This document shows, in pieces, positions 26,562 through 43,203 of a stretch of 64,000 nucleotides of DNA. A program made the position numbers and the translations under genes. The DNA is from Sphingobium sp. 66-54. Its GTDB lineage: Bacteria; Pseudomonadota; Alphaproteobacteria; Sphingomonadales; Sphingomonadaceae. The stretch is taken from positions 248,001 through 312,000 of the forward strand of contig MKWI01000003.1 of the NCBI GenBank assembly GCA_001899715.1, read 5' to 3'. The notes under the pieces are model-generated. The model worked only from the letters and a program-made list of their open reading frames with translations, had not been told where the DNA came from and searched no databases. Position 1 is the stretch's first letter. Every line of letters starts with the position of its first letter.

Positions 26562-26585
26562 TTCGCAAAATCCTAAATTATTATA

Positions 26586-27260: not shown

Positions 27261-27309
27261 AATACCCCCAAACGCGAAACATCTATACAGTGTTGGTTAG
27301 GTATGCCTG

Positions 27310-28611: not shown

Positions 28612-30171
28612 ATGAATACTCGCACTTCGCTGCCGAAGCGCAGCCTATCCCGGCTGCTATCATGGCCATCCGTGGGGCTATGGCTCGCTTATCTGGTCGC
28701 CTTCAGCATCAGCCACGAAATCGCGCGGATATGGGGCGGGGCCTATTTTTTCAGCCTGTGGTATCCTGCGGCCGGCATCAGGTTCGCCTTTCTCTGGCGC
28801 TATGGCGCGCGATGGACATTCCTTATCGCTGCCGCTGAATTGCTGGCGCAGAGCCTATTGTGGACAGTCATCGAACATCAGGTCGTATCGCCGAGGATGG
28901 CGGTCGACATTATCCTGCCGTCGCTGACCTCCGGCGGCGTCATCGCAGCCATAAGATATGAAAGCCGTCGCAATCCATCCGAACTGGCGATTGCCCCGCT
29001 ACCGCTCGGACTTGCCGCCATATTGACGCCGACATTCACCGCGCTTGTTCGAGGCGGATGGGAATGGGTGTCATCCCATTACGATGCTTCGGCCACCTTC
29101 CTTCCCACCTCCATATTCCTGTTAGGGGATATGCTGGGCATTCTAATCGTCGCGCCATTCCTGCTGTGGCTGAGCGAAGGCAAAGGCAGGTGGGGCGAGT
29201 TGAGGCTGTCCTGGCCTGATCTAAGACAGGCTGCCCTTGTGTTTGCGCTAGGGTGGTCGCTTGCTCTGCTGCTGCCTGATCTCCGGCTAATGCCCATCAT
29301 GCTTTCGATGACATGGCTGGGATTGCGTTACGGCAGCAAAGGGGCATGGATCGCCATTATTCTCTCCAGCGGTGTGACGCTGTTCTGGTCTGCCAAGGTG
29401 CCGGATATTCCCACGCAGATCGGGCTTCACATCGGCTTGGCCGTGGCTGCCGTATCGGCCTATCTGGCGGGTAGCTATACCGATGCCCAGCAGGCCGCAC
29501 GAGAGATTATCGCCCGCCGCGACCGGCTTCTATTTCAGGCCGAGCGGCTGAAAACATTGCGCGCTATGTCTGTCGCGGTGATCCATGAAATCAGCCAGCC
29601 CCTTTCCACGCTCGCCATCGAAAGCCGTCATCTCGCGGCCATCAGTCGAAATGATACAGAGATTGCTGGGAGCGCCGCGCTGATTGCCCGCAAGGTCGAA
29701 ACATTGTCCACGACGATACGTCGCCTGCGCCGCTTCGGCGGACGCGCCGTGGATGAGCCATCGCCCTTGTCGCTGGGCTTATTGCTGAGCGAAGTGGTGA
29801 AACTTGCCATCGGAGAAACTGGCCAGAAGCTGGACAGGGCTCAATTGATCGTGCCCGCAACGGACGTTTTTGTGGTGGGACAGGAAATCGAGCTGACCCA
29901 GGCCTTTCTCAATCTTGTCCGCAACGCGATGAGCGCGTCGCCGACTCGTCCGATCACAATCCTTCTGTCAAGCAACGCACAAGGCGCGAGTATCATGATC
30001 GCCAACCCCCATGCGAACGTCGTTTCGGATTCGGGCGGCTTCGGCGTAGGCAGCCTGATCGCACGGGCCATCATCATGGCGCATGGCGGCACTCTGATCC
30101 GCAAGGACGGGAGGGATGGCCTGATCCGTCATGAAGTGTGCCTGCCAATTATCGAGACCCCTCATGAGTAA
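28612..30171 (+). CDS. MASE1-type membrane sensor histidine kinase
   Basis: A 519-residue kinase. Residues 1-300 are a MASE1-like sensor with about eight membrane helices (FFSLWYPAAGIRFAFLWRYG is a typical opening). A dimerisation helix with the phospho-acceptor His325 in VIHEISQPLSTL follows, then the ATP-binding domain with the N-box LNLVRNAMSA and a G-box GGFGVGSLIARAIIMAHGG. The MASE1 input senses an unknown small ligand or membrane state. The stop overlaps the regulator start by eight bases. I used the ATG at 28612; TTG and GTG codons just upstream are in frame. Confidence 0.9.
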   Translation: MNTRTSLPKRSLSRLLSWPSVGLWLAYLVAFSISHEIARIWGGAYFFSLWYPAAGIRFAFLWRYGARWTFLIAAAELLAQSLLWTVIEHQVVSPRMAVDIILPSLTSGGVIAAIRYESRRNPSELAIAPLPLGLAAILTPTFTALVRGGWEWVSSHYDASATFLPTSIFLLGDMLGILIVAPFLLWLSEGKGRWGELRLSWPDLRQAALVFALGWSLALLLPDLRLMPIMLSMTWLGLRYGSKGAWIAIILSSGVTLFWSAKVPDIPTQIGLHIGLAVAAVSAYLAGSYTDAQQAAREIIARRDRLLFQAERLKTLRAMSVAVIHEISQPLSTLAIESRHLAAISRNDTEIAGSAALIARKVETLSTTIRRLRRFGGRAVDEPSPLSLGLLLSEVVKLAIGETGQKLDRAQLIVPATDVFVVGQEIELTQAFLNLVRNAMSASPTRPITILLSSNAQGASIMIANPHANVVSDSGGFGVGSLIARAIIMAHGGTLIRKDGRDGLIRHEVCLPIIETPHE

Positions 30172-30757
30172 AAATCTCTCTGCTCTTGTCCATGTCGTGG
30201 ACGATGATGAGGATTTGGGCGAGGCAGTCGTTCGCCTGCTGATCCGTCACGGCTATCAGGCGGAATCATTTGTCGCCCCGGAAATGATGCTGGACGCCTG
30301 CGCTCGACAGGAATGTCAGTGCGTCGTCACCGACATCATGATGGGAGAAATGGACGGATTTGCATTGGCTGATGCTCTGCGCGCACGCAATCCAGCGGTC
30401 GCCATCATCTTCATGACGGCGTGGCCCACCACCGCCAATGCCGTGGATGCAGTGCGTCGCTATGGCGGCCTGGATTATCTGGAAAAGCCGATTGACGAAG
30501 CGCGCTTGCTTGCGGCTATCGCTGAGGGCGTTGCGTGGAGCAGGAGGCGTGGCGCGGCACTGATCCGCATGGATCGTTTGACAGCGCGGGAAAGGCAGGT
30601 TCTCAATTTACTGGCGGCGGGCATGAGCAACAAGCGAGTCGCGGCCAGTCTGGAACTCAGCACCAAAACCGTGGAAGATCACCGTGCCGCCGTTATGGCT
30701 AAGACCGGCACCAGTAGCATTGCCGATCTGATTGCACTGGTCAGGGACGCGCAATAG
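30164..30757 (+). CDS. FixJ/NarL-type response regulator
   Basis: A 197-residue response regulator: acidic pocket DDDEDLG, phospho-acceptor Asp57 in CVVTDIMMGEMDG, conserved Thr in IIFMTAWP and Lys in LEKPIDEARL. A C-terminal LuxR-type domain follows (LTARERQVLNLLAAGMSNKR then LSTKTVEDHRAAVM). It is the cognate partner of the preceding MASE1 kinase, and the coding regions overlap by eight bases. The FixJ-type linker and output suggest activation of a few promoters, possibly inside the element. Confidence 0.92.
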   Translation: MSKNLSALVHVVDDDEDLGEAVVRLLIRHGYQAESFVAPEMMLDACARQECQCVVTDIMMGEMDGFALADALRARNPAVAIIFMTAWPTTANAVDAVRRYGGLDYLEKPIDEARLLAAIAEGVAWSRRRGAALIRMDRLTARERQVLNLLAAGMSNKRVAASLELSTKTVEDHRAAVMAKTGTSSIADLIALVRDAQ

Positions 30758-30778
30758 CGCCCCTGACTATCTGTTTCC

Positions 30779-31240
30779 TTATCGGGCCGTTGCCGTCTTG
30801 GACTTGGGCTTGAAGTTAGCACGGCGGGCATCGCGGGCGGCGTTAAGCTGGGGGTCCAGTTCGCCCGCGCTGATCGCCTCAACGATCGACGCGATGAGGC
30901 TGGGCAACTCCGCGAGATTCTCGACCTCCACGGCGTTCATGCCCTTCGTGAATTCCAACGGCTTACCGCCGTAGCGCATCTGGAAAAACATCTTGCCAGC
31001 CGCATCCGTGAACCAGCCCTTACGGACATGGCGCGGCGCATCGACGCGGATATTTTCACCCTCCGCGTTCTTGCGCGTTACCTTCTTGGTCGCGACAAAA
31101 GGCGTTCCGCTGATTTCCGCTTCCGCAAGGGCCTTCTGTTCGTTGAGATAGCGGACGAGCTTGCCGCGCAGCATCTGCTCGGGCGTCAGGGGCGCATTGC
31201 GGGTGGCAGCAGTCAGCTTGAGTGTCTTGAGGATCGACAT
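30779..31240 (-). CDS. DUF6641 family protein
   Basis: A 153-residue basic protein beginning MSILKTLKLTAATRNAPLTP, with RGKLVRYLNEQKALAEAEIS, KGWFTDAAGKMFFQMRYGGK and VEVENLAELPSLI. This matches the DUF6641 group, small proteins encoded on phages, plasmids and integrated elements. AAGGAG lies at good spacing before the ATG at 31240. It is convergent with the response-regulator gene. Function is unknown; the many basic residues would allow nucleic-acid binding. Confidence 0.75.
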   Translation of the reverse strand: MSILKTLKLTAATRNAPLTPEQMLRGKLVRYLNEQKALAEAEISGTPFVATKKVTRKNAEGENIRVDAPRHVRKGWFTDAAGKMFFQMRYGGKPLEFTKGMNAVEVENLAELPSLIASIVEAISAGELDPQLNAARDARRANFKPKSKTATAR

Positions 31241-31462
31241 TTTCGATTGCTCCTTGGCCGTTATGGTCAAGGTCAGTCGATGGCATCGTCGTTCAGACGG
31301 TCGATTGAAATCAGAAACACCGCTTTGCGCCCTCATTTCTGACGTTCGGCGGAACCGCTGGCGATCCCGAAAGCAGCCGTTCGTCAGATGCAGGCCAGTA
31401 TGGCAGCTGTTGGGTGGGACGCCGTATGGCTGCTTGATCAGTAGCAGAAACGCGTTCTTTGC

Positions 31463-32983
31463 TCAGATATAGTGTCGAAACGGCAAGGGCGGTGGGTCGA
31501 GTTCCGGCGGAATCGCCGTAAGCACGCGACCAACGCGATCGGCAAATCGGAGGGTAACCGGCATGCCGTCGGCATATAGACAAGCGTTGAAGTTCACCTT
31601 GGTGAGCGCCAGGACATCGGTCATGACAGTGCGCAAGTCGGCATCACCGCGACAGATATCAATAAGCAACGGATTCGGGACCTCGCGTCCCTGGTAGGTC
31701 TGAAGTCGCGGCACGAAACCTAGAGTCCAGAGCAGGCCCATCCGCTCGGAGAAGGGCATGGCCATTCCTCTGAGCGATGTATAGCGATCGTCGCGATAGA
31801 GTTTGCGCAACCCGTTTCGCTTGATCCGCACGCCAACGAGAGCAGTGCCTTCAGGCACTCCCGCCTGGAAGCCTGCCCATTCGGCATCGTTGAACCGCGC
31901 GCGACCATGGATGAAGATTTCCTTCGGTGCCTCTCCATGCTGAGAATGATAGCCGGCGATGGCCTTGCGGATCAGCGCTTCGGCATGTGCCTCGTCGAGA
32001 TGATATTCTCGCGTCTCGTCGCTGTACCAGTCGCCAACTGCTCCCTTGAAGACAAGGCCGTCGCCGTCAGACAGGAACATCTGCGCACCACAACACGCCT
32101 GGCTACCTGACCGCTCGTCGAGCTTCTTGTAGACCATGCCGAGATAGCAGACGCCGTGTCGAATGCCATCGAGGCGCCAGGGCTGGCCGCCCCCCTTGTA
32201 GAACGCTCCCGTCGCCAAGTTCCAGGCGATATCGACAGGATCTTGCAACATGCGCGCCGGTGCACCGTTAGGCCGGGTGAAAGCGTGAGGAGCGAGCGTC
32301 GTCTCGCGCACGACCTGGATTACAGCGCGCGAAGCGAGCAGACGCCCTTTCAACTGGTCACGAAAGTCTCGCGCGTAACGGTGCATCTCAGCACTTTTGT
32401 TCACCTCTTCGAGGAAGGCGAAATAGGGTTCGGAGGCCAGTGTCTGTGCTTGCTTTCGGCTGAGCGCCTCATCCTGATTGGTCCGCTCAGCCATAGGGAC
32501 CGTCGATTTTGGCCGGCCTCGCTCATAGACAGACTCCGGGATCACCACAAACCACATGTCAACCGGATAGTCTTCCTCGGTTACGTAGCGCGCGATTTGG
32601 CTTTGGTAGAGGCCGACTGTATTGTAGATTCGCTGGTGGCCGTCGGCGTGTCGAAGTGCCTCGTCAATGTCCTTCGGATCGATCGCAAGTGACGCTACGG
32701 GCTGCTCAGACCAACTGCATTTAAAGGTCGCCTCGAAGCCAGGGAACATAGACTGTTTTGGGTCTCCTTCCCGTGAGACCGGCACCGCGCCTTGAATCGA
32801 GGCGACCCACTGGCGCAAATAGCGAAGCCCGTCCGGAGTCCCTATCGCGCCGACTCGGAGCGTCTTGGGCTGACGATGGTCATGAACAGGCCCGAAAGCC
32901 GTGAGGCCGTCCTTTGGATGCTCCATGGATTGCCCGTAACCGAACACGCATCTGGGCTCCGGAATGTACCAAAGAGCGGTCAT
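31463..32983 (-). CDS. Short prokaryotic Argonaute (MID-PIWI) of a SPARTA system
   Basis: A 506-residue short Argonaute with MID and PIWI domains and no N or PAZ domain. It opens YIPEPRCVFGYGQSMEHPKD with GLTAFGPV, and has MFPGFEATFKCSW, the MID region, then VCYLGMVYKKLD, AQMFLSDGDGLVFKGAVGDW, EIFIHGRARFNDAEW and GFVPRLQTYQGREVPNPLL, ending ACLYADGMPVTLRFADRVG. These blocks match the Argonaute of the SPARTA systems described from Maribacter and Crenotalea. In short pAgos the PIWI slicer tetrad is lost; guide-RNA-directed recognition of DNA instead activates the partner NADase. The start overlaps the TIR-APAZ stop (ATGA), so the two subunits are made together as a heterodimer. Confidence 0.95.
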   Translation of the reverse strand: MTALWYIPEPRCVFGYGQSMEHPKDGLTAFGPVHDHRQPKTLRVGAIGTPDGLRYLRQWVASIQGAVPVSREGDPKQSMFPGFEATFKCSWSEQPVASLAIDPKDIDEALRHADGHQRIYNTVGLYQSQIARYVTEEDYPVDMWFVVIPESVYERGRPKSTVPMAERTNQDEALSRKQAQTLASEPYFAFLEEVNKSAEMHRYARDFRDQLKGRLLASRAVIQVVRETTLAPHAFTRPNGAPARMLQDPVDIAWNLATGAFYKGGGQPWRLDGIRHGVCYLGMVYKKLDERSGSQACCGAQMFLSDGDGLVFKGAVGDWYSDETREYHLDEAHAEALIRKAIAGYHSQHGEAPKEIFIHGRARFNDAEWAGFQAGVPEGTALVGVRIKRNGLRKLYRDDRYTSLRGMAMPFSERMGLLWTLGFVPRLQTYQGREVPNPLLIDICRGDADLRTVMTDVLALTKVNFNACLYADGMPVTLRFADRVGRVLTAIPPELDPPPLPFRHYI

Positions 32984-34473
32984 TGCGCTTCCTCGTCCTC
33001 AAGATCATCCCAGCCCTCGACCGCCGTACCGGCCTCCGGATCCTCTTCTGGAACCTCTTCATCAGACTTGGGATCAGGCTCGACTTCGGCGACGGGCTCT
33101 GTGCCCGTCGGTCGGACGCGGGCCTTGGTCGGCGGCGGATCGAACGATACTGGGCTCGTATAACGCTCAGGCCGAGTGTCGATAATGCAGACTTGGTCTT
33201 TTGATACCGGCATCTCGATGCGTCCATCATCATCAGAGAGACGCGCAAAATAGGCGAGATGCAGCGTCCGCCATTGCTCATTGAACCACTGCTTGCAGAA
33301 ACTACGGCGGATTTTGTGCGCCTTATCTGGATCACCCAGTAAGTTTCGGCCATTGGTAGTAAAGGCGACATGGGCCTCGACATGTGCCTCATCCACATTT
33401 CCAAGCGCGAATTGTAGCCGCGGCGCATAATGCCAGTGCATCGCGATAACCCGCGTCTCGCCCGACTTTTTGGTCTTCACGCCATAGAGAAAGCGCTTGC
33501 GTGGCCGCCCATCGAAGTCGGTGAACCGTACGAAATTGCCCTCAATGGTGCCGGCCGGCCAGAACCAACCGCTGCGGCCGGACGCAAGCGTGAGGGGCTC
33601 GAGGCCCCGGTGGAGACAGAACCGGTCCCAAGCCTGCCGCAGCATGTTGACGACATGGTTGGACGCGTCTCGCCGGGCGACTACCGGATCGCCTCGCTTA
33701 GGCCGTCCTTCCAAAAAGGCTTCGATCTCCATCTCGGCACGCAGCGTGATTTGCATCTCAGCTGGCAGATAAGTGCGCATCTCCTCCAGGCCAGCGAAGG
33801 TGACAAGCAAGGCGTCATGTCTGACGCTCGGCACTGGCAGCATGTCGGGAATCTTTTTGAGTGTCTCAGCACTTACTCGCAGATTGTAAAAGCGCACATG
33901 AGACGGCAGCGCTTCGAGCCCGAGTGAGTTCGTCATGAGTTCGGCGTTTCGCTCGATCACCCGATGCCGCCCCTCGAACCAGTCGGAGACCCATTGGCCG
34001 ACCGCCTGCGGCTCAGCGCTCTTTGGAAATTCGTCGCGCGCGAGCAGCTTAAGCAGCCTCGCGAGCCCGTCAGCCCACGAAGGATGGAAGGCGATCGCAT
34101 TCTGCCGCGCGACTTGCATGGGGAGGTCACTTCGCTGGAGTGGTGCGAGTGTTATAGGGACGATGAACTTGTCATGCTCGATCCCGAGGCCCTCGGCGGT
34201 CGCAGCGGCGCGCTCTATCTCGTCAAGCACGCCGTTTTTCGAGCGCGTTACCTTGGAGACGATAGCGACTGTCTTTCCAATCACCGTATCAAAAGCTTGC
34301 TCAATACCGCTCCAGAACCGCTCACCCCCAATCAGCTGTGTGGCCTCTGACCAGACGCGATATCCGGCATTAGCTAACTGCACACCGAGCCAGACGGCGA
34401 ATTCGGTGTCCTCTGGCATAGCGTGACTGAGAAAGATGACATCCCTTGGCACCTTTGCGCTCGCATTGTTCAA
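32980..34473 (-). CDS. TIR-APAZ NADase subunit of a SPARTA system
   Basis: About 497 residues (TTG start at 34473 with GAGGG upstream; frame open to a TTG at 34518). The TIR domain begins VIFLSHAMPEDTEFAVWLGV, with YRVWSEATQLIGGERFW. The likely catalytic Glu is in VLDEIERAA, equivalent in position to Glu77 of Maribacter SPARTA. From about residue 155 an APAZ domain follows, with LPSHVRFYNLRV and RRSFCKQWFNEQWRTLHLAY. The last 35 residues are highly acidic (DPKSDEEVPEEDPEAG), like the C-terminal tail that occupies the nucleic-acid channel in the inactive complex. On invader detection the complex oligomerises and degrades NAD(P)+. Confidence 0.93.
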   Translation of the reverse strand: MNNASAKVPRDVIFLSHAMPEDTEFAVWLGVQLANAGYRVWSEATQLIGGERFWSGIEQAFDTVIGKTVAIVSKVTRSKNGVLDEIERAAATAEGLGIEHDKFIVPITLAPLQRSDLPMQVARQNAIAFHPSWADGLARLLKLLARDEFPKSAEPQAVGQWVSDWFEGRHRVIERNAELMTNSLGLEALPSHVRFYNLRVSAETLKKIPDMLPVPSVRHDALLVTFAGLEEMRTYLPAEMQITLRAEMEIEAFLEGRPKRGDPVVARRDASNHVVNMLRQAWDRFCLHRGLEPLTLASGRSGWFWPAGTIEGNFVRFTDFDGRPRKRFLYGVKTKKSGETRVIAMHWHYAPRLQFALGNVDEAHVEAHVAFTTNGRNLLGDPDKAHKIRRSFCKQWFNEQWRTLHLAYFARLSDDDGRIEMPVSKDQVCIIDTRPERYTSPVSFDPPPTKARVRPTGTEPVAEVEPDPKSDEEVPEEDPEAGTAVEGWDDLEDEEAQ

Positions 34474-34595
34474 AACCCGGCCCTCACACCATTGGTCGCC
34501 TGTTATCGACGAGTTCAAGCGTCAGCAATTTGCTATTCCATGCTTGGATCGTTCGTGCTTCTTCTATTCCCGCCTACCACACATGAAAGGGGCCT

Positions 34596-35270
34596 ATGGC
34601 ATTGAAAGAGGAGAGCCTAGTGGCGCTTAGAGTGGCGCACCTGAGCATGATCCAAGGCGTCATCGCCCGCATGTCTGGGTTCAGCGCCAGCGCGAAGACG
34701 TTCACTATCACCATCCTCGCGGGGCTCGCTGCTATTTCGCTTCAAGCGGATGCCGCACAGCTGGGCGTGATTGCGATGATCTCGGCCATCGCCCTATTCC
34801 TCGTCGATACCTACTACATGACCTTGGAGGTGCGCTTCCGCAATTTCTACGACGAGGTGGCGGCGCGCGATTTGGATCAAGCGTCCAATCTGAAGATCGC
34901 ACCATCCGTCAACCCGGGCGACACGAAGAGGGCCATCAACAGCAAGTCAAACTGGCTCTTTTATGGACCGGTTTTGTTCGCCAGCACCCTCTTCATCTGC
35001 TACGGTCTGATCCATGAGCGGAAATCCGAACGACTTTCTCGATCCGATACTCCGCGCGTTGAGCGACCCGCCGACACCGGCTCTGCCGTCGCAGGAAAAC
35101 GCGTTGAGTCGTCTGTTCAACCCACCGCCGCCACCAAGGGGGATATTGGGCGCTTACCTGGACAATCAATCGGCGCCGCCGGCGCTGAGCGGATTGTTCG
35201 GGGCGAACCCGCAGCCGAACGCTCTGGGCGGCCTGTTCGGGCTGAAGCCGCAGGCAGCACCCCCCGTTAG
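34596..35270 (+). CDS. Three-helix membrane protein preceding a TIR protein (candidate effector)
   Basis: A 224-residue protein. Residues 1-25 are amphipathic (LVALRVAHLSMIQGVIARMS). Two close membrane helices follow (TFTITILAGLAAISLQAD and LGVIAMISAIALFLVDTYYM), then LEVRFRNFYDEVAARDLD, and a third helix (WLFYGPVLFASTLFICYGLI). AAAGGGG precedes the ATG. From residue 140 on, a 85-residue Arg/Ser/Gly-rich tail is encoded in the same DNA as the start of the next gene in another frame. The family is often seen next to TIR proteins but has no assigned function as far as I know. A membrane effector activated by a TIR-made signal is a reasonable hypothesis. Confidence 0.72.
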   Translation: MALKEESLVALRVAHLSMIQGVIARMSGFSASAKTFTITILAGLAAISLQADAAQLGVIAMISAIALFLVDTYYMTLEVRFRNFYDEVAARDLDQASNLKIAPSVNPGDTKRAINSKSNWLFYGPVLFASTLFICYGLIHERKSERLSRSDTPRVERPADTGSAVAGKRVESSVQPTAATKGDIGRLPGQSIGAAGAERIVRGEPAAERSGRPVRAEAAGSTPR

Positions 35271-35898
35271 CCTTCCTGCTCCTGCGCCTCGTGTGAGGCG
35301 CGTGTTCTATTCATTTCACTATGCGGATGTGAACCGCGTCAATCAGGTTCGGCAGTCTGGTAAGATAAGGCCGATCGACAGCGAGCGGGTTAAGACCGTT
35401 CAAGACCGAAGTCTCTGGGAACGCAAGAAGAGCATCAACGAGGAGTATCTTCGGAGGGCGATCGCAAAGAACATCGTGGGCACTAGCGCGACCTGTGTTC
35501 TAACCGGGGAACATACTTGGGAGCGACGCTGGTGCCGGTTTGAGATCGCCCGATCGCTGCTCAACGGCAATGGCGTTTTCGCCGTGCGGATCGACCACCT
35601 CTATTGCATTGGTCAGCGCTGCTATGGGGCACCGGGGCCAAACCCGCTCGATTATATGGCGGTGGGCAGAGACAATCAGGGCCGCATCTACGTATACGAA
35701 TATTTGGACGGCGGCTGGTATAAGATGTCCACGATGGCGAAGCAGCTGATGCGCTGGCCCAAGTGGCTCCAGCCGGTGCCGCCGGGATACGTGCGGCAGC
35801 TTTCTTCAGGGGCACCGATCTACGACTACGAAAGCCAGAACGGCTCCCGGCTTCTTCTCTATTGGGCTAACCAAGCTGCGAAGGCGGCCGGACGCTAG
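35014..35898 (+). CDS. ThsB-like TIR-domain protein (DUF1863 type)
   Basis: A 294-residue protein with a Pro/Leu/Phe-rich N-terminal 90 residues containing the repeated pattern NALSRLFN, PALSGLFG and NALGGLFG. From residue 93 a TIR-like domain follows: VRRVFYSFHYADVNRVNQVR, the linker SLWERKKSINEEYLRRAIAK, ATCVLTGEHTWERRWCRFEI and ARSLLNGNGVFAVRID. This order matches ThsB-like/DUF1863 TIR proteins, which make a cyclic-ADP-ribose-type signal in Thoeris. The RRWCRFEI Glu is the likely catalytic residue. The start lies 257 bases inside the membrane-protein gene in a different frame, and no strong ribosome binding site is visible, so the exact start is uncertain. Confidence 0.82.
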   Translation: MSGNPNDFLDPILRALSDPPTPALPSQENALSRLFNPPPPPRGILGAYLDNQSAPPALSGLFGANPQPNALGGLFGLKPQAAPPVSLPAPAPRVRRVFYSFHYADVNRVNQVRQSGKIRPIDSERVKTVQDRSLWERKKSINEEYLRRAIAKNIVGTSATCVLTGEHTWERRWCRFEIARSLLNGNGVFAVRIDHLYCIGQRCYGAPGPNPLDYMAVGRDNQGRIYVYEYLDGGWYKMSTMAKQLMRWPKWLQPVPPGYVRQLSSGAPIYDYESQNGSRLLLYWANQAAKAAGR

Positions 35899-36071
35899 GT
35901 CCGCATGCAAGCTGTGTCTTTCAAAACATAAGCAATCACTCAGATGCAGCGCGCTCCTTAAGCGCGAAGGCAGCAATGGCCGAGCTTGACCCTTCGCGCG
36001 ACCGTCTCCGCAATGTCTGTTTTCTGCGTCTCGCGACCAAAGTAGCCGGTCCGGAAGCGGCACAAAGGTGC

Positions 36072-36608
36072 CTATCTGTCCATCAACCGGTATACTGATT
36101 GCCTATGGCAGCCGAGCTGGTGGGCAATCTCACTGGCCGTAATTCCCTGAGCGGCCATTTCCCTGACCCGTGCAGCGTCAATCCCAGCCTTGCGCCCCTT
36201 GTAGACGCCATTGGCTTTGGCCTTGGCAATGCCCGCGCGTTGCCGCTCCCTCCTGATGTCGTTCTCAAATTCCGCCACGGCGCCCAATATCGCGAGCGTC
36301 AGCTTGCCCGTGCTGCTGCTGGTGTCGATGGACTGGTGGACACACTGGAACGCAACGCCCTTGCGGTTGAGTTCGTCCAGTAGCTGAAACAAGTCCGTCA
36401 ACGAACGAGCGAAACGGTCGAGCCTGCTGACCACGATGGTGTCGCCGTCACGGACAAATTGCATCATTTCTACCAGGCCCGCGCGTGCCCTGCTGGTGCC
36501 GCTCGCCTGATCCTGAAAGATGCGTTCGCAGCCGTGAGCGGCCAATTCGTCCATCTGGACGTCGAGGCTTTGGTCCGTGGTGCTGACGCGTGCATAGCCG
36601 ACGATCAT
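36072..36608 (-). CDS. Small serine resolvase/invertase
   Basis: A 178-residue recombinase of the Tn3 resolvase/DNA invertase type: MIVGYARVSTTDQSLDVQMD with nucleophile Ser9, VVSRLDRFARSLTDL, GAVAEFENDIRRERQRAGIA, and a C-terminal helix-turn-helix (GITASEIAHQLGCHRQSVYR). A longer frame to 36656 exists, but the resolvase fold begins at 36608. It is separate from the large integrase and could resolve dimers, invert a segment, or be left from an earlier insertion. A perfect 17-base palindrome lies about 130 bases upstream. Confidence 0.9.
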   Translation of the reverse strand: MIVGYARVSTTDQSLDVQMDELAAHGCERIFQDQASGTSRARAGLVEMMQFVRDGDTIVVSRLDRFARSLTDLFQLLDELNRKGVAFQCVHQSIDTSSSTGKLTLAILGAVAEFENDIRRERQRAGIAKAKANGVYKGRKAGIDAARVREMAAQGITASEIAHQLGCHRQSVYRLMDR

Positions 36609-36734
36609 GTTTGCTCCTGTCACTTTCGGGTCTGGAGCCTGACCATCTGATGTCATTTCCGGCGGAAATCGACCTCAATGTGACAGGCGCAGCATGGAAT
36701 GCGACTGTCACGACAGGGACTACCTGAATGCGGC

Positions 36735-36751
36735 ACTCACTAGTAGTGAGT
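36735..36751. repeat. Dispersed palindrome, copy 2 (perfect 17-mer)
   Basis: ACTCACTAGTAGTGAGT is a perfect odd-centred palindrome, located between the resolvase and reverse-transcriptase genes. Confidence 0.65.
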
Positions 36752-36787
36752 CGGACGCGCAGGCCTCCACCGCGAGCGAGGTCCGTT

Positions 36788-37657
36788 TCAATTCTTGGCA
36801 GCTATTTGCCGAATCTGACCAGATATGCCTGCGACCCGTCCCAGCAGCGCTTGTCGATCATCATCCGCCGCCGCCGCGAGCAACGCCCGCGCTTCGTGCA
36901 TCTTTTTGTGCTGGCGAAACGGCGCAACCAACTTGCCATCGCGAACTACGACGCCGGTTATCTCAGCAGGTTGGTCCACGAAGGTTTTTTCCTTGTGGTA
37001 GCGCAGGCCCATGCCGTGAATCATTCTCTGCACCTGCCAGACATCGGCCTTTGGTACCCGCGTGCCAGAAATGGTCACGTCGTCGATATACACTGTGAAG
37101 GCATAGCCCCGCTCCTTGCAGAACGCGGCGATGCGTGCCCACAGGTCGTAATAGGCGAAATAGGCCATGATCGGGCTCAAAGGCGACCCAGTGGGCAAAT
37201 GCTCCCGATAACAGGCAAGGTTCGCGAGCAGGCCAGCGATATCGCGCTCGCACTGCATGACACTATGGAAGAACCAGAAGACCCGCCGTTGTGGAGTGCT
37301 GGGAAAGAACTTGCGAATATCGAGGCATTGGACCACGCGATTACCCCGATGCACCGCCGCATTGGTGACATAGCAGCGTCGCTTCACGGGGCAAAAAAGG
37401 AACTCTGGCGGATTGATGCGGGCCAGTACCTTCGCGAGCCTCGCCTGAACGCGTTTCAATGCCTTGCATGGGTTTTCGACGTGCCTGACGCCGTTGCCCG
37501 ACTTCTTCGGAACATCAAACTCAGTGTAGAGCGTGTCGCCGATTGACAGCGCGCGCAGGTCTGCTCCCGTAACGCCCAACAGCGCAGCCAGCTTAGAACG
37601 GCTACGCATCTTGTATAGCGGCGACTGGTTCAGCGCATATGTTGACCTATTCCGCAT
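36788..37657 (-). CDS. Retron-type reverse transcriptase
   Basis: A 289-residue reverse transcriptase without maturase or integrase domains. Residues 12-40 form the usual N-terminal helix (SPLYKMRSRSKLAALLGVTG). NAAVH at residues 99-103 fits the NAxxH signature of retron enzymes. Asp113 in CLDIRKFFPS is the first catalytic acid, LPTGSPLSP is motif B, YIDD at 190-193 is the catalytic core, and ITG at 233-235 replaces the usual retron VTG. The ATG at 37657 overlaps the stop of the XRE regulator; a TTG at 37681 is the alternative. Retron enzymes make a branched RNA-DNA hybrid from a nearby msr-msd RNA, which would here be upstream of the small ORF. Confidence 0.88.
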   Translation of the reverse strand: MRNRSTYALNQSPLYKMRSRSKLAALLGVTGADLRALSIGDTLYTEFDVPKKSGNGVRHVENPCKALKRVQARLAKVLARINPPEFLFCPVKRRCYVTNAAVHRGNRVVQCLDIRKFFPSTPQRRVFWFFHSVMQCERDIAGLLANLACYREHLPTGSPLSPIMAYFAYYDLWARIAAFCKERGYAFTVYIDDVTISGTRVPKADVWQVQRMIHGMGLRYHKEKTFVDQPAEITGVVVRDGKLVAPFRQHKKMHEARALLAAAADDDRQALLGRVAGISGQIRQIAAKN

Positions 37658-37952
37658 GGACACGGCCCGAACGCGCTTCAAGGAACTGCATCAAGCCGAC
37701 CATCTTGCCAGCCACGAAAGAACGGGCGCGATCATAAGCGCCTCCATCTTCCACGTTCTCGGCAAAAAACATGATCGAGGAAACGGGCAGTCCGAAGATA
37801 TTCGAATAGCGCTGGATCAGGTCCAAGCTGGGCGTCTTATGCCCCTTCTCAATCTCAGATAGGTACGAAGTGGAAATATCAAGCCGCTCGGCGACCTGCT
37901 TCTGCTTCAGGTCGTGATAAACGCGAATGAGCCTGAGGGCTTCACCAAGCAT
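37647..37952 (-). CDS. XRE-family helix-turn-helix regulator of the retron-like cassette
   Basis: A 101-residue protein. Residues 5-62 are a Cro/C1-type helix-turn-helix (LIRVYHDLKQKQVAERLDIS, TSYLSEIEKGHKTPSLDLIQ, RYSNIFGLPVSSIMFF). A short helical C-terminal part follows, ending in an Arg-rich tail. TAGGAG lies five bases before the ATG at 37952. The stop overlaps the reverse-transcriptase start, so they are coupled. A helix-turn-helix partner is the hallmark of the retron class called type VI in published classifications. It could be a repressor of the operon or the effector/toxin controlled by the RNA-DNA hybrid. Confidence 0.88.
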   Translation of the reverse strand: MLGEALRLIRVYHDLKQKQVAERLDISTSYLSEIEKGHKTPSLDLIQRYSNIFGLPVSSIMFFAENVEDGGAYDRARSFVAGKMVGLMQFLEARSGRVHAE

Positions 37953-37994
37953 GTTGGCTCCTAACAAATCCAAAATGTAATGCAGGGTGGCGGA

Positions 37995-38168
37995 TCATCC
38001 TTTGAACAGCTTCACCAACTCAATGGCCAGACGCAGGATTTTCGCAATCCAAGGCCCAACCGTCAGTAACACTTTTAGCGTCTGCGGGTTTACCAATCGG
38101 CTTGCCCACTTCGGCTTATTCTCCGGCTTCAACCGCCCACGTTCCTTGTCGTCGTCCCGATGAGTCAT
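37995..38168 (-). CDS. Small 57-residue protein of the retron-like cassette
   Basis: An ATG at 38168 preceded by AAGGAG at seven bases opens a 57-codon frame. It begins MTHRDDDKERGRLKPENKPK with a highly charged N-terminus and ends in one long amphipathic or membrane-like helix (LKVLLTVGPWIAKILRLAIE, then LVKLFKG). It ends 43 bases before the XRE start on the same strand, so it is the first gene of the XRE-reverse-transcriptase operon. No homology is recognised. A small helix-forming peptide next to a retron could be a toxin or membrane effector. Confidence 0.65.
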   Translation of the reverse strand: MTHRDDDKERGRLKPENKPKWASRLVNPQTLKVLLTVGPWIAKILRLAIELVKLFKG

Positions 38169-38400
38169 CGACTTTCTCCTTCTTCACCAACCACCGGGAA
38201 CGGTGGCGTCGCCATCTGGCTCGGAAGGTAGGGAAGGAACGTGCTTACCCTGATCACCTGGGCGGTCCCCCGCCATCGGGGGCCGCCCGTGGCCGCCACG
38301 CGCATCGCATGACACAGCCATAATGGTAGGAGGTTCACACCCCCCGCGAAGGTCGCCCTTCAATGAATGATGGCAGTCCCCTTTATGACTAACGACATCA

Positions 38401-38775
38401 TTTAGGTGCCTGATCGCAGCGGACATGTCCAGAATTTTATTCGCTGTGAGCGAACTTTTTTCCCGAAGGCTGGTCTGGCAACGGGATTGTGCGGCAGCCA
38501 CTAGTAGTGGGGCAATCCCACCGCTCATTTGGCTTTCCCGTCGCTGTCGCTCGGTAAATCCAATATCAGCAGCGCCGCTTTCCAAACTCGCCTTGCTCGT
38601 TTGGCGCGCCGTGCTCGCTGCTAATGTTCGGATGGAATTATTTTCCTCTGATCGGCGGATTGGTGATGCGGCGATAGCGATGGATATTCGCTTAGGCACC
38701 TGAGCCGAAATACTTCTATCCCCCCTCCCATAAAAACCGAAGAAAATCGGTCCTCATGGGAAGGGGGATGAGAGT
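38401..38775 (-). ncRNA. Candidate retron msr-msd or other structured RNA
   Basis: On the minus strand, upstream of the 57-residue gene, many stems are packed into about 370 bases. ATCCCCCTTCCCAT pairs with ATGGGAGGGGGGAT (38718-38771). ATTAGCAGCG pairs with CGCTGCTGAT (about 38565-38627) and encloses CCAAAC/GTTTGG. GGGATTG pairs with CAATCCC, enclosing CCACTA/TAGTGG (38482-38519). TTCGCT pairs with AGCGAA (38440-38454). AGGTGCCT near 38701 and AGGCACCT near 38410 are complementary over eight bases and could be the outer a1/a2 arms, with AAGC just after the first arm as a possible branching site. No protein gene is supported here. The exact boundaries and the retron assignment are hypothetical. 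Confidence 0.45.
38499..38509. repeat. Dispersed palindrome CACTAGTAGTG, copy 3
   Basis: CCACTAGTAGTGG lies within the structured region upstream of the retron-like operon and forms the tip of one of its stems. Confidence 0.6.
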
Positions 38776-39428
38776 TTTGACATTCGCTTGAGTTCTTCGC
38801 GGTCAACACTTTGTATTCAATCACATTGGTTGTCCAATGCAGCGGGGTCGCCCTGTCGCTGTCCGGTCAGCCGATCTTGTCGGCCTTGCCCGTGGTGGAG
38901 ATTGTCATCTTATGTGCGGCGGTGGCTGGCTGGGACCAATACAATAGCATCCAGTCAGCGTGCAGGTCATCAATGGTCCTAAAAGGCAGACGTTTCCTGC
39001 GTCCTTACCACTGGGAGGATGAGCAGCCTCCCGCTTACCTGATCTCTGTCTCAGTCACGCCGTTCCCCGAGGGGCGAAGAATCTAATCCTCTGGCTGTAG
39101 ACAGGCCATTCGTGGATCGCATTGTTTATAGAGGTGCCAAAACGCCAATCTGCAGGTTACCCCGGTTATGCGCCATTCCTTCCTCTGCGCCGCTGCCAGC
39201 ACTGTGACCTCGTGAGCCACTCATCCTTCCCGTCTTCGTCCGGGTTAGGGGTTCGTATATGCAGCCATGTAAAAGCCCGATGTGCGGACTTTGGAAACAC
39301 ACATCGGGCTGGAACGTCATTGGTAGCAACAAACTGGCTCGGCTGTGTCGAAGCACACAGGCAAATCCAAAGTCCGCTGCTTCAATTCTATTTATACATC
39401 ATGCCAGAATATAAATTGATGCGCACAA
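38776..39428. other. Gap with structured inverted repeats, no supported gene
   Basis: No convincing coding region is seen between the structured region and the gene at 39429. The stretch 39274-39377 contains nested complementary segments (separate entry). The rest, 38776-39270, shows only short frames without ribosome binding sites. Confidence 0.5.
39274..39377 (-). terminator. Hairpin terminator with possible loop pseudoknot
   Basis: On the minus strand AGCCCGATGTG pairs with CACATCGGGCT (39300-39310 with 39274-39284) and is followed by TTTAC, a plausible terminator for the gene ending at 39429. Its loop contains TCCAAAGTCCGC, exactly complementary to GCGGACTTTGGA found 70 bases upstream in the transcript (39366-39377). 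CTGTGT/ACACAG lies between them. The arrangement allows an alternative fold or pseudoknot, as in an attenuator. Confidence 0.5.
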
Positions 39429-40412
39429 TCATTGCCGACGATCACGATCCTTCTGCCCCTGCGCGGAGGCATCAAACCACTTGCCGTCTGAATCCTGCTT
39501 CCAGATCGGATCGAACTCAGGGCCAGCATCGAATTCAACATTGCCAATCTCATCAACGGCCCGATTTTCCCGCTGCCGCCTGATCCTCTCCCAATCCAAG
39601 GGAACAGCATTCTGACAGGCTGCATAGGTGGGGAATATCCCGCGCGCCGCGTTCTCCGCGATCATGTGTCCGCGACGTAGCGCGCGGCTGGTCAGTATCT
39701 TGAGTGCCGTGCGATCCTTGGCATCCACCTCGCCCGCAGGCTTCGCGGTCGGATCCAGCCGCCCGTCATACATGGTGCTCAACCTCACGGCGGCACCAAT
39801 CTGCCAGAGCGTAGCGGTTGGGTTATCTCGTTTTTCGCAGAGGCAGCGGCGGTATTTCCCGACGCTACCCCAATCGAGCTTCTTCCCCGTTGGCTGATAT
39901 TTGGGAGCTTGTGGCGACAGAACGCGGTCGTGCTCAGGCAACTCGTCCAGCATGGCAGCAATCTGCTTGATGATCGCGCCTTTAGACAGGCCAGCGGGAA
40001 TGGCGGCCACGAGCGTTGTCCGTTCGCCCTGCATGATCCAATCCGCTTGAGCGTAGCGCCCAACCGCTTCCGCGATCCGATCGAATTGCGGCCGCTCACT
40101 ACTCGTGAGTCCAAGGCTGACGACGCAGGGCCGCGCGCCGCTATGACCGAATTGTCGATTTGCACCGGCCAACCACCAGTCAGCGTAGTTGCCTGAAACG
40201 TCGCCCAGGTCGTCATACACAGCCAACACAGCGTCGAAATCCGCCGGAAGGTTTTCCAGCTGCTGACCCGCACGATGACGACGCGCAAGCTCGTAGCTCG
40301 GGCTGAATTGCAGAAACTCAAACCATTCGTGGATGCGGCGCATCGCCACGAAGGTGGTCCATGTGCCGCCATCCTCGCGAATTATGTCCTGCCGATCGTC
40401 CAGCCCACGCAT
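39429..40412 (-). CDS. Hypothetical protein of mobile elements
   Basis: About 327 residues (ATG at 40412; a TTG at 40427 is in frame). The N-terminal part has WTTFVAMRRIHEWFEFLQFS, PSYELARRHRAG and VYDDLGDVSGNYADWWLAGA, a pattern I associate with uncharacterised phage and plasmid proteins that carry an FGDVxxxxFxxWW-like block. The C-terminal half contains RTALKILTSRALRRGHMIAE and GIFPTYAACQNAVP. No enzymatic motif is seen. A degenerate copy of the dispersed palindrome lies inside the gene at 40097. Function is unknown. Confidence 0.6.
   Translation of the reverse strand: MRGLDDRQDIIREDGGTWTTFVAMRRIHEWFEFLQFSPSYELARRHRAGQQLENLPADFDAVLAVYDDLGDVSGNYADWWLAGANRQFGHSGARPCVVSLGLTSSERPQFDRIAEAVGRYAQADWIMQGERTTLVAAIPAGLSKGAIIKQIAAMLDELPEHDRVLSPQAPKYQPTGKKLDWGSVGKYRRCLCEKRDNPTATLWQIGAAVRLSTMYDGRLDPTAKPAGEVDAKDRTALKILTSRALRRGHMIAENAARGIFPTYAACQNAVPLDWERIRRQRENRAVDEIGNVEFDAGPEFDPIWKQDSDGKWFDASAQGQKDRDRRQ
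40097..40107. repeat. Dispersed palindrome, degenerate copy 4
   Basis: CTCACTACTCGTGAG, one base from the perfect form, lies within the coding region at 39429-40412. Confidence 0.45.
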
Positions 40413-40543
40413 TCGCCCACGCTTCAAAAAGGTTATCCTAATACGCCAACAATAATCAAGATAATCACGTATCAGGACAACTTCTGCGTATCAACTCCTC
40501 ACGGCGCAGCACGGTGCTGCCGCCGCTTTGTAGGAGAATGTAA

Positions 40544-41605
40544 ATGAAAGTTAATGAGTTGAAGGCGCTGGTAGCTGACTTCCAGACGACGCGTCTGGAC
40601 GATGACCAGATGAAGATGGTTGGCTTTGAAGGGCAGGGGCGCGCAGTCCTCTACAACCAGTTGGCGGAAGCATATCGCATCGCCAAGCTGCTTCTGACCA
40701 AAGGCCCTAATCGTGGTGCGTTCCAGAGCATGATGGAAGCCGCGGGAATGACCGTCGAGGCGAAGAAGTTCGAGGACGACAAGGCCACCAACGAATGGGC
40801 CTACGCGACGAAGCTGCTCTACGGCAAGTTTGTCGAAAAGGAATTCCTCAACACTGTGTTTCAGGAATTCGAGCCGAATCGCTCGGCGGAAAGATACGGC
40901 TGCATTCTGCGCCACCTCAACAAGCATAATATCGCCGTAGAGGCCGCAGCTGATTACATGGCGAACTTCACTCACGAAAAGGGTAACGCGCTTTTTGGCA
41001 TTGAGGCAGTTGATCGTGCCGAAGCCAAGGGCGAGGGCAACAGCAAGGACGAGAAGCAGGAGCAGACGTATCTGAACTTTGGTGTCTCTCCTGCGCCTAA
41101 TGACGTTGTCCAGTTTGAAGTTCCCGCTGACTGGTACGACGACAAGCGCTTCAAGTCTGATAATCAGTTCGGCACTTGCTGGTTTGAAGTTAAGGATGGT
41201 CGAGTTTTACTCTTCGACCGCAAGCCGTTGAAGGAAGACGATTTCAAGAAGCTCGCAACGGCCCGTGGCAAGCGACTCTATGCTGAACACAAGGCTACTC
41301 AAAAGACGCTCGATAACGTGGCGAAGGCGTCGAACAGGAAGTTAGATGCCGCTGAGAAGATCCGAGCTGGTGACAAGGACTTGGCAGTTATCAAGACCGG
41401 TGTTGTCGGCACGACTACTGCGGAATATCGGAATATGCTGAATGCTCTCGGCGGCGAAGCGAAGCAGGATGCTGCCAACGCTATGGAGCATCGCCAGTAT
41501 TTCACTGACCTTGCAGGCGGCAAGCTGGGCGTTGATCCGCTCAAGAGCATCGTACTGATTAAGTCTGCGTCTGAGCAGCTTCCGTCTGAGGAGATTGCGG
41601 CATGA
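40544..41605 (+). CDS. Hypothetical protein, phage-like
   Basis: A 353-residue soluble, highly charged protein with no signal peptide or membrane segment. It begins MKVNELKALVADFQTTRLDD and contains GQGRAVLYNQLAEAYRIAKL, a Lys/Glu/Gln-rich linker near 165 (KGEGNSKDEKQEQ), and a helical C-terminal half (KATQKTLDNVAKASNRKLDA). GTAGGAGAATGTAA precedes the ATG. Codon use is more AT-rich than in the flanking chromosome. It overlaps the next gene by four bases (ATGA). I do not recognise a family. The composition and compact pairing suggest a phage or satellite origin. Confidence 0.65.
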   Translation: MKVNELKALVADFQTTRLDDDQMKMVGFEGQGRAVLYNQLAEAYRIAKLLLTKGPNRGAFQSMMEAAGMTVEAKKFEDDKATNEWAYATKLLYGKFVEKEFLNTVFQEFEPNRSAERYGCILRHLNKHNIAVEAAADYMANFTHEKGNALFGIEAVDRAEAKGEGNSKDEKQEQTYLNFGVSPAPNDVVQFEVPADWYDDKRFKSDNQFGTCWFEVKDGRVLLFDRKPLKEDDFKKLATARGKRLYAEHKATQKTLDNVAKASNRKLDAAEKIRAGDKDLAVIKTGVVGTTTAEYRNMLNALGGEAKQDAANAMEHRQYFTDLAGGKLGVDPLKSIVLIKSASEQLPSEEIAA

Positions 41606-41928
41606 GCAACTCAATCTCCATCCCTTATCAGGGAGACGCGCTTGATATCGCAGTCGCGGAAGCGGAAGCGAAACTGATAGTTGAAAATACGGTTGGTATC
41701 GTATTTGGCTATATGATTGGCGATGATGTCGAAGTCATCGTTGAGTTTGTAGACAACGCAAATGAAGCTATGACGAAATACGCTCAAGCCGCTAACCGTT
41801 TCATGCAGAGAGCCAATAAACCTGACCTGCCTATGGACGTAGTTACGCGACCAGTTGGTTGGAACGGACTGGACGCAGCATTGATTCGCGAGTTGGTGAA
41901 AGAGAGCCATGAGTTGATGGCTTTCTAA
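41602..41928 (+). CDS. Hypothetical small protein coupled to the preceding gene
   Basis: A 108-residue acidic protein (MSNSISIPYQGDALDIAVAE, IVFGYMIGDDVEVIVEFVDN, PVGWNGLDAALIREL) without signal peptide or membrane helix. The ATG overlaps the stop of the 353-residue gene (ATGA), so the two are translated together and may form a complex. A terminator follows at 42008. Family and function are unknown. Confidence 0.65.
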   Translation: MSNSISIPYQGDALDIAVAEAEAKLIVENTVGIVFGYMIGDDVEVIVEFVDNANEAMTKYAQAANRFMQRANKPDLPMDVVTRPVGWNGLDAALIRELVKESHELMAF

Positions 41929-42007
41929 TAGCGTCACCTGTCACCGCATCAGTGTGGCAGCATATATCACCCACGGAGGGCGCTATGCTCGACGGCGATG
42001 GTTTCTG

Positions 42008-42039
42008 AAACGCTCTCACGGTTCGCCGTGGGGGCGTTT
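42008..42039 (+). terminator. Rho-independent terminator after the two-gene unit
   Basis: The stem AAACGC-tct-CACGG pairs with CCGTG-ggg-GCGTTT around a TTCG loop and runs into TTTT. It closes the transcript of the genes at 40544 and 41602. Confidence 0.75.
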
Positions 42040-42052
42040 TCATTTGCCCACC

Positions 42053-42063
42053 CACTACTAGTG
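42053..42063. repeat. Dispersed palindrome, copy 5
   Basis: CCCACTACTAGTGGG, the reverse orientation of CACTAGTAGTG with extended arms, lies just after the terminator near the right end of the element. Confidence 0.6.
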
Positions 42064-42190
42064 GGCCACGCCGTGATCTGGAATTATCTACATAGTAAAT
42101 TATCGTGCCTGATCGGCATCGACATCGTGTTCGATGAATATATGTGGGTAGAATGGGAGTCTGCCTTCGTGATCAAAGGCTGATTGACGG

Positions 42191-42406
42191 TCAGTTCGAC
42201 CGCTGTAGCTGCCGAATGTAGCTGTCCTTGCGGGCGCGCTCCATCTTTCTGCGGCGCTTGTGCTGGTCCTTCACGGATTGCAGCGCCTTTTTCGCTACAT
42301 CGACCTCGCGCTTTTTAGCTGCCTCGAGCGATTGCTCAGGCGTCAGGGGTTTGTGCGGCTTTTTGGCCTTCTTCGGCTTGGTCGTCGCGAACTCGTAAAA
42401 TCTCAT
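42191..42406 (-). CDS. Small basic phage-type protein (MRFYEF family)
   Basis: A 71-residue, strongly basic protein beginning MRFYEFATTKPKKAKKPHKP followed by LTPEQSLEAAKKREVDVAKK and a long Lys/Arg-rich helix to the end. Small proteins with an MRxYEF start and a LTPEQ helix are common in phage and integrated-element genomes. Their role is unknown. The frame is open to 42484, but the family start is at 42406. It is the last gene before the right attachment site. It could be a candidate directionality factor by size and charge only. Confidence 0.6.
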   Translation of the reverse strand: MRFYEFATTKPKKAKKPHKPLTPEQSLEAAKKREVDVAKKALQSVKDQHKRRRKMERARKDSYIRQLQRSN

Positions 42407-42502
42407 GCCGTATTTATGCGGCCATGCTGGAATACGCCATCTGACGAATATTTCGCCCTCGTAAATGCGGCTCAAAAATCGCACGTTTCTGCGATTTCTT
42501 AC

Positions 42503-42545
42503 GTGTTACAACCATAACCACTTGCTCGGCATCGTGCAGCACCAC
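42503..42545. repeat. Right attachment junction of the 18-kb element
   Basis: On the minus strand, host codons GTGCTGCACGATGCC meet GAG (42525-42527) and then element sequence CAAGTGGTTATGGTTGTAAC. The element half GTGGTTATGGTTGTAA is the imperfect complement of the left element half TTACAACCGTGTCCAC, as expected for attP arms. Confidence 0.85.
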
Positions 42546-43037
42546 CGCCAGCGCGGCCCGCTCCTCCGCTGCCTCCCAGCGTCGCAGCGCGCGCCAGAGC
42601 TGGTTGAGGCAATCCGCCTTGGTCGTCGGCCCCGGCCGCTCGTTGATGACCAGCGTCACCCGCCCCGCGCCCGGCCCGGCGGCAACATCGGCCACCGCGT
42701 CGATGGTCGCCCGGTCATTGGGGTAAGTGCCGACGAAGATGTGCAGATCCTCGTCTCGCCAGGCGTCGAGGCAGCCGCGCAGCATCCCGCCGATGACCGC
42801 CGCCTCGTCCCACGCCGGCACGAAGATCGCGATCGGCCCGGCCGCACCGGCCGGCGGCAGGTCGCGCGCCGTCATACGGGGGACGCGGCGATAGACTGTC
42901 AGCGCTCGCCAGCCCCGGCGCACGCCGTAAAGCAGGTCCAGCAGCAGATCGTCCAATCCGCCCAGCAGCAGACCGACCCCGGCGAACAGCAACAGCTCAT
43001 TGCGCAGCAGCTCAAGCGCCGCGACCGCCACCCCCAT
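42525..43037 (-). pseudogene. Family-2 glycosyltransferase (NfrB-like), N-terminal part
   Basis: The first 171 codons of the glycosyltransferase: an N-terminal membrane region (LLRNELLLFAGVGLLLGGLD), IAIFVPAWDEAAVIGGMLRG (the GT2 nucleotide-sugar strand), HIFVGTYPNDRATIDAV and ERPGPTTKADCLNQLW. It ends at VVLHDAE, the metal-binding acidic motif, where the element begins. A read-through frame adds 37 element-encoded residues before a stop at 42414. The C-terminal half is at 23355-24242. The start at 43037 is the ATG preceding the hydrophobic stretch; the frame is open upstream to 43100. Confidence 0.88.
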
Positions 43038-43203
43038 CAAATTCCCCCTCGCCGGCTTCTCCCGCGCCGGCAGAGACGCCTTCGCCGTTCGCCTCCACAA
43101 AGGACAACCGAATAATTATGATGGATAACAAGCATAGCTTTGGGGATACCCGCGTCACCGCACCCGTTTGACGCGCCGATGCCGCTTCTCTAGCGAGAAG
43201 ACC

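What the first reader, a model, noticed from the sequence alone, without database searches (positions are those of the whole stretch)
36788..38775. Retron-like cassette of the helix-turn-helix (type VI) class
The reverse transcriptase carries NAAVH before the first catalytic Asp and ITG after YIDD, fitting the NAxxH and VTG marks of retron enzymes. It is coupled to an XRE protein, preceded by a 57-residue gene and a heavily folded upstream region. Type VI retrons are among the least studied, and their effector mechanism is not clear to me from published work.
Basis: partly seen in the sequence, partly recalled or inferred. Interest (0 to 1): 0.78.

Follow-up and report, generated by a model that had tools for sequence, protein, structure and literature searches.

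The report
Type VI retron with peptide toxin
This is a type VI retron, a bacterial reverse-transcriptase cassette likely used against phages; its small, positively charged protein is predicted to be a membrane-acting toxin, and conserved base-pairing in its RNA would link the toxin's message to the step that makes the retron DNA.

Summary
RT (36788-37657, -) and XRE protein (37647-37952, -) match PADLOC's type VI models far above all others (RT_VI 300.7 bits, HTH_VI 120.7), and the RT's predicted fold is closest to solved retron RTs. Comparing 51 non-redundant loci showed: an operator TTCGCT-N3-AGCGAA (2 mismatches or fewer in 45 of 51), found once in the 4-Mb genome; hairpins and a covarying helix P1; a second covarying helix P2 joining the leader to the sequence just behind the small gene's stop; a small protein with a basic N-terminus and an amphipathic helix, in all 51; and no shared gene behind the RT except a TIR gene in 2 of 49. 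I infer that the peptide is the toxic effector, kept silent by XRE, RT and msDNA. msDNA, toxicity and phage defence are untested. The cassette sits in an 18-kb defence island.

The parts
38440..38454 (-). Operator: inverted repeat TTCGCT-CAC-AGCGAA, likely bound by the XRE protein
   Evidence: 2 mismatches or fewer in 45 of 51 loci; one place in the own genome; coordinates. Binding is inferred.
38426..38431 (-). -35-like hexamer TGGACA
   Evidence: read in the sequence behind the operator; promoter not tested
38169..38384 (-). Conserved structured leader RNA, candidate msr-msd
   Evidence: alignment of 21 leaders and covariation
38369..38374 (-). Helix P1, 5' arm GCCATC (candidate a1)
   Evidence: covariation with 38211-38216; not formed in the window's own minimum-energy folds
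38348..38361 (-). Hairpin SL1 (msr-like)
   Evidence: covariation
38328..38345 (-). Hairpin SL2 (msr-like)
   Evidence: covariation
38260..38288 (-). Long hairpin SL4 (msd-like)
   Evidence: covariation; fold
38247..38257 (-). Helix P2, 5' arm GTGATCAGGGT
   Evidence: pairs with 37977-37988
38211..38216 (-). Helix P1, 3' arm GATGGC (candidate a2)
   Evidence: covariation
38176..38181 (-). Shine-Dalgarno-like AAGGAG of the small gene
   Evidence: read in the sequence
37995..38168 (-). Small gene, 57 aa: basic N-terminus, amphipathic helix; predicted effector
   Evidence: positional homologue in all 51 loci kept; dN/dS; fold model. Toxicity is inferred.
37977..37988 (-). Helix P2, 3' arm ACCCTGCATTAC, just behind the small gene's stop
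37647..37952 (-). XRE (helix-turn-helix) protein, 101 aa
   Evidence: PADLOC HTH_VI 120.7 bits; start by homologues
36788..37657 (-). Retron reverse transcriptase, 289 aa
   Evidence: PADLOC RT_VI 300.7 bits; fold; motifs

Best explanation
This is a type VI retron whose 57-residue protein is likely its effector, a membrane-acting peptide toxin that the XRE protein, the reverse transcriptase and its predicted DNA product would keep silent until a phage disturbs them. Shown by sequence: the order operator, structured leader RNA, small basic protein with an amphipathic helix, XRE, RT; an operator that is conserved and unique in the genome; hairpins and two long-range covarying helices, P1 within the leader and P2 joining the leader to the sequence just behind the small gene's stop codon. 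Inferred: P1 is the a1/a2 helix of a classical msr-msd; the RT copies the leader strand upstream of P1's 3' arm into msDNA; XRE represses its own operon at the operator and may also bind msDNA; the P2 5' strand lies in the stretch that would be copied, so making msDNA would open P2 and couple DNA synthesis to translation of the small gene and XRE; loss of msDNA or RT, or titration of XRE by a phage protein, would release the peptide, which would damage the membrane and stop the infected cell.
For: Class: RT_VI 300.7 bits (next 136.2) and HTH_VI 120.7 (next 33.8); retron-first fold and profile ranking. Operon: small ORF before XRE in 63 of 70 loci by rule, 51 after dropping 12 near-identical ones. 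Peptide: in 51 loci 48-67 aa, median net charge +9, Trp in 48; predicted helix 28-56; mostly purifying selection; no shared gene behind the RT except TIR in 2 of 49. Operator. RNA: P1+SL1+SL2+SL4 95.6% of cells paired, covariation 0.455 against 0.201 shuffled, 0 of 500; P2 z 9.2, 0 of 10,000 re-pairings, 92.1% paired against 38-47% slid, and all 11 pairs formed in the unconstrained fold of 37950-38395.
Against: No msDNA, toxicity or defence data. The small protein matches no library family, its model is weak overall (pLDDT 70.8, pTM 0.32), and two of 13 pairs show dN/dS near 0.9. Three plasmid loci carry a TIR gene right behind the RT, so some type VI loci may use another effector. P1 is 6 bp, a window-wide scan over 51 loci found no P1 signal (z -0.08), the number of P1 pairs with double changes is not above shuffles (155 of 500), and P1 does not form in the window's minimum-energy folds. 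P2 support is collective: in the window's own row 22 of 51 partners score at least as well, because relatives share it.
Confidence: 0.58

Rival explanations
1. P2, not P1, is the a1/a2 helix, so the small gene lies inside the msr-msd RNA and the RT copies the toxin message itself, making antisense DNA and consuming the message.
For: P2 is the longer helix, varies in length between loci as a1/a2 helices do (recalled), reaches 18 pairs in L075, and forms in the unconstrained fold. A G lies in a conserved stretch just 3' of its 5' arm.
Against: The hairpins that look like msr (SL1, SL2, SL4) lie upstream of P2, outside it; the small gene is under protein-level selection; P1 also covaries.
Confidence: 0.2
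2. The small protein is not a toxin but a nucleic-acid-binding helper or antitoxin of the RT-msDNA complex; the effector is XRE itself, acting on transcription, or a gene elsewhere (such as the TIR genes behind some relatives).
For: The protein is strongly basic (median +9); TIR genes follow the RT in L076, L079 and L081.
Against: No gene is shared behind the RT in the other loci; the hydrophobic amphipathic helix is the most regular feature; in the window the next gene is a serine resolvase 131 nt on.
Confidence: 0.25
3. The enzyme is a group II intron or DGR reverse transcriptase and the neighbourhood is coincidence.
For: The RT fold is shared with both.
Against: RT_VI and HTH_VI scores, retron-first ranking, conserved operon, NAxxH and [VI]TG invariant.
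Confidence: 0.02

Closest known systems
Type VI retrons (class of Mestre et al. 2020, paper not held; PADLOC RT_VI and HTH_VI)
   Same: RT, XRE/HTH protein and a small auxiliary protein; PMC8541194 (passages) describes type VI as RT genes with genes for DNA-binding and small auxiliary proteins
   Different: Not shown to differ; the operator, leader anatomy, P2 and the peptide's character are described here and I did not find them in the held library
Type IX retron Kva2 (PMC13405049, passages)
   Same: Four-part operon with a DNA-binding (winged-helix) protein that holds the msDNA; a phage helix-turn-helix protein triggers it
   Different: Its effector is a HEPN RNase; no HEPN gene here, and its DNA-binding protein is winged-helix, not XRE
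Retron Ec86/Eco1 (type II-A, type recalled)
   Same: Best sequence-profile match in the PDB and among the best folds
   Different: Its effector is a ribosyltransferase (PMC12948488, passage); no such gene here
Small membrane toxins of type I toxin-antitoxin loci (recalled)
   Same: Works like, if the inference holds: a short membrane-seeking peptide under RNA control
   Different: No antisense RNA shown; a retron RT and an XRE protein are in the operon; no similarity search against such toxins was made

Membership tests
Retron | RT of the retron group, with NAxxH and VTG-type marks | tested here: met
   NAAVH and ITG, invariant positions in 32 sequences; profile and fold rank retrons first; no tree
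Retron | msr-msd RNA closed by an a1/a2 helix | tested here: inconclusive
   structured covarying leader next to the genes; two candidate closing helices P1 and P2; no Rfam match
Retron | msDNA produced | not testable with these tools
   needs extraction and sequencing of small DNA
Retron | phage defence | not testable with these tools
   defence-island setting only
Type VI retron | RT_VI profile is the best | tested here: met
   300.7 bits against 136.2 for the next
Type VI retron | HTH protein encoded next to the RT | tested here: met
   HTH_VI 120.7 bits; 11-nt overlap with the RT
Type VI retron | small auxiliary gene | tested here: met
   57-aa gene with positional homologues in all 51 loci kept
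Diversity-generating retroelement | DGR-type RT | tested here: not met
   DGR RTs rank behind 18 retron matches; template and variable repeats were not searched for
Group II intron | RT with maturase domain | tested here: not met
   Pfam at E 0.1 finds RVT_1 only; group II RTs rank behind retrons; intron RNA was sought only through Rfam

The most novel reading that the evidence does not exclude
In type VI retrons reverse transcription itself is the antitoxin: helix P2 ties the toxin gene into the retron RNA, so copying the retron strand into DNA opens or consumes the very message that encodes a membrane-killing peptide, and a phage that disturbs the RT, its DNA or the XRE repressor frees that message.
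Probability: 0.25. Interest if true: 0.85.

Novelty: new member of a known kind. Interest (0 to 1): 0.6.

Why it matters
In the held library I found one paper with the phrase 'type VI retron' and no account of its effector or RNA (searches; the founding paper is not held). This work names an effector candidate, an operator to footprint, an RNA to sequence and two helices to break and restore. If P2 couples DNA synthesis to toxin translation, that would be a kind of toxin control I have not met in other retrons (from recall).

Tried and rejected
An early guess that AGGTGCCT near 38703 and AGGCACCT near 38404 were a1/a2 was dropped, because the sequence upstream of about 38460 is not conserved in L003. 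Rfam at E up to 1 gave nothing for 35900-39600. An unrestricted duplex search and a loose pairing score (also 0 of 10,000) found many competing GC-rich pairings; the strict score replaced them, and in several loci even its best pairing is not P2. A second control window that partly overlaps the P2 arm gave z 3.7. The helix at columns 191-193/210-212 proposed by RNAalifold was left out because it competes with P2. A window-wide scan for P1 showed nothing. The P1-like words found in other groups (28 loci searched) were not tested against chance. Mestre et al. 2020 could not be read. No tree was built. L029's RT appears interrupted; it was left as it is and kept in the counts. In one search the listed papers matched an unrelated abbreviation, so that search says little.

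Full report
Observation. The RT, XRE and 57-aa frames are present as described. Homologues move two starts: the RT begins at Met9 (ATG 37657, 289 aa) and the XRE protein at ATG 37952 (101 aa), so that the RT start lies inside the XRE gene (11-nt overlap). In a 32-sequence RT alignment (31 relatives picked from the 120 listed of 605 found) N107, A108, H111, Y198, D200, D201, T242 and G243 are invariant.

What the proteins are. PADLOC gives RT_VI 300.7 bits (next model 136.2) and HTH_VI 120.7 bits (next 33.8); the small protein matches nothing there and in Pfam only a weak Dicer_PBD line at E 0.086, below its cut-off. The AlphaFold model of the RT has mean pLDDT 88.6. Its first 18 PDB fold matches are all retron RTs, then come DGR and group II intron RTs. 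The sequence profile ranks Ec86 first (1.4e-28) and the best group II intron RT at 1.7e-7. No tree was built.

Relatives. Seventy records were compared: the window, 46 genome loci, 4 viral contigs, 4 loci from whole genomes (L054-L056, L075) and 15 plasmid or phage loci (chosen from the rows listed for 185 plasmid and 41 phage records). An automatic rule found XRE in 65 of 70; L015 had no upstream sequence and L056 no convincing small ORF, leaving 63; 12 near-identical ones were dropped, leaving 51. Read by eye, six of the others gave: L054 (apparently the contig of L014), L055, L077 and L078 with operator and small basic ORF, L056 doubtful, L034 with neither. The cassette is rare in close kin: 4 of 397 family genomes, own included, at E 1e-60 and 2 of 385 in the class sample, own included. 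With the RT_VI profile 15 of 61 genomes match at E 0.001, of which 4, own included, exceed 240 bits.

Small protein. In the 51 loci it is 48-67 aa (median 57), median net charge +9 (range 1 to 17), with Trp in 48 of 51; the best 18-residue hydrophobic moment is 0.46-0.63 in the 8 loci computed. The window's protein has charge +7 and a predicted helix 28-56 after a low-confidence N-terminus (mean pLDDT 70.8, pTM 0.32). dN/dS is 0.22-0.37 in 9 of 13 pairs, 0.44, 0.89 and 0.91 in 3, undefined in 1; some pairs rest on very few changes. Behind the RT no gene family is shared except a TIR gene in 2 of 49 usable loci; 21 of 49 have no same-strand ORF of 80 aa or more within 200 nt. By elimination and character I take the small protein as the likely effector. 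That is inference, and the TIR genes count against it for those loci.

Operator. TTCGCT-N3-AGCGAA has 2 mismatches or fewer in 45 of 51 loci (21 exact, 50 of 51 at 3 or fewer; L086 has none), and 45 of 51 beat 95% of shuffles. The loci range over alpha-, beta- and gammaproteobacteria and one cyanobacterium at 1 mismatch (L032). The consensus was read from these same loci. A -35-like hexamer follows it in the window. In the own genome the exact pattern occurs at one place, here; the reversed control pattern at none. Autoregulation by XRE is inferred.

Leader RNA. The conserved RNA is 38384-38169; folded alone it is only modestly better than shuffles (z -2.09). In 21 alphaproteobacterial leaders (of 22 taken from the 51; L076 left out because the anchor motif was not found) the structure P1+SL1+SL2+SL4 has 95.6% of cells paired (40-55% when slid), 16 of 28 pairs with changes on both sides, covariation 0.455 against 0.201, 0 of 500 shuffles. 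The structure was derived from the same alignment. P1 alone: 96.8% paired (15-64% slid), 15 double-changed cells against 4.1, 0 of 500; but 3 pairs with double changes is not above shuffles (155 of 500). A window-wide scan for P1 over 51 loci showed nothing (z -0.08), and P1 does not form in the window's minimum-energy folds. Words that would make P1 with other letters occur in some other groups, for example TCTCGC/GCGAGA in L040 and L045, untested against chance. The 5-base motif of the P1 3' arm recurs in the SL4 loop in 15 of 21 leaders.

P2. GTGATCAGGGT (38257-38247) pairs with ACCCTG-C-ATTAC (37988-37977), just behind the small gene's stop (37995). All 11 pairs form in the unconstrained fold of 37950-38395. 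Over 51 loci the summed cognate pairing exceeds every one of 10,000 re-pairings (z 9.2); a control window gave z -1.3, a partly overlapping one 3.7. The support is collective: single loci often do not rank first, the window's own among them (22 of 51 partners at least as good). In 22 aligned loci 92.1% of cells pair against 38-47% slid, with 28 double-changed cells against 10.9 (0 of 500), while the numbers of pairs with double changes (30 of 500) and of pair types (161 of 500) are less striking. L075 shows 18 pairs with one bulge. P1 and P2 cross, so together they would form a pseudoknot.

Mechanism. I take P1 as a1/a2, because it would close a domain of two short hairpins and one long one in the classical order (recalled), and P2 as a link between the strand to be copied and the junction of small gene and XRE. 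Making msDNA would then open P2. The alternative, P2 as a1/a2 with the gene inside the template, is the bolder reading and is not excluded. In the type IX retron Kva2 a winged-helix protein holds the msDNA and a phage helix-turn-helix protein triggers the system (PMC13405049, passages); XRE might play such a part here. The trigger of this cassette is unknown.

Setting. The cassette lies in an insert of about 18 kb (about 24,235-42,510) that splits a glycosyltransferase gene: the two halves match PF13641 positions 3-100 and 96-229. The N-half matches in 17 of 21 genomes, own included; 14 of the 16 others have open frames of 478-573 aa, two have 205 and 294. The insert carries a large serine recombinase (24301-26001), a short Argonaute (657.1 bits) with its TIR partner (430.4 bits), a pair matching candidate system PDC-M50A/B with a ThsB-like TIR protein, a small serine resolvase and the retron.

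Literature. Seen: passages of PMC8934634, PMC8541194, PMC12548924, PMC13405049 and PMC12948488; otherwise search listings with openings of abstracts. The founding classification is not held, so I claim only that I did not find these features described.

Noticed in passing
window 24235-42510: An 18-kb insert splits a glycosyltransferase gene (halves 42414-43100 and 23355-24356, both -); a large serine recombinase (24301-26001) sits at its left end.
   Followed up: partly
window 26121, 36738, 38499, 42053(-): CACTAGTAGTG occurs four times in the whole 4-Mb genome, all four inside this insert; two copies flank the retron cassette (the reversed control pattern occurs twice). It could be a recombinase or cassette-boundary site.
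   Followed up: partly
window 31463-34518 (-): Short prokaryotic Argonaute (pAgo_I 657.1 bits) and a TIR protein with Argonaute-partner domains (430.4 bits), overlapping by 4 nt.
   Followed up: no
window 34596-35898 (+): Two overlapping genes matching candidate defence system PDC-M50A/B; the second has a ThsB-like TIR domain.
   Followed up: no
L076 2507-3466, L079 2411-3376, L081 2411-3376: In three plasmid type VI cassettes a TIR-domain gene follows the RT by 19-79 nt, a possible extra effector.
   Followed up: partly
window 38273-38277 and 38212-38216 (-): The motif GATGG stands both in the SL4 loop and in the P1 3' arm; the two copies agree in 15 of 21 leaders even where the letters change, which might mean a switch between two partners of the P1 5' arm.
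   Followed up: partly
window 38720-38767: Long near-perfect hairpin (CCCCCCTCCCAT...ATGGGAAGGGGG) in the unconserved folded stretch upstream of the operator; function unknown.
   Followed up: no
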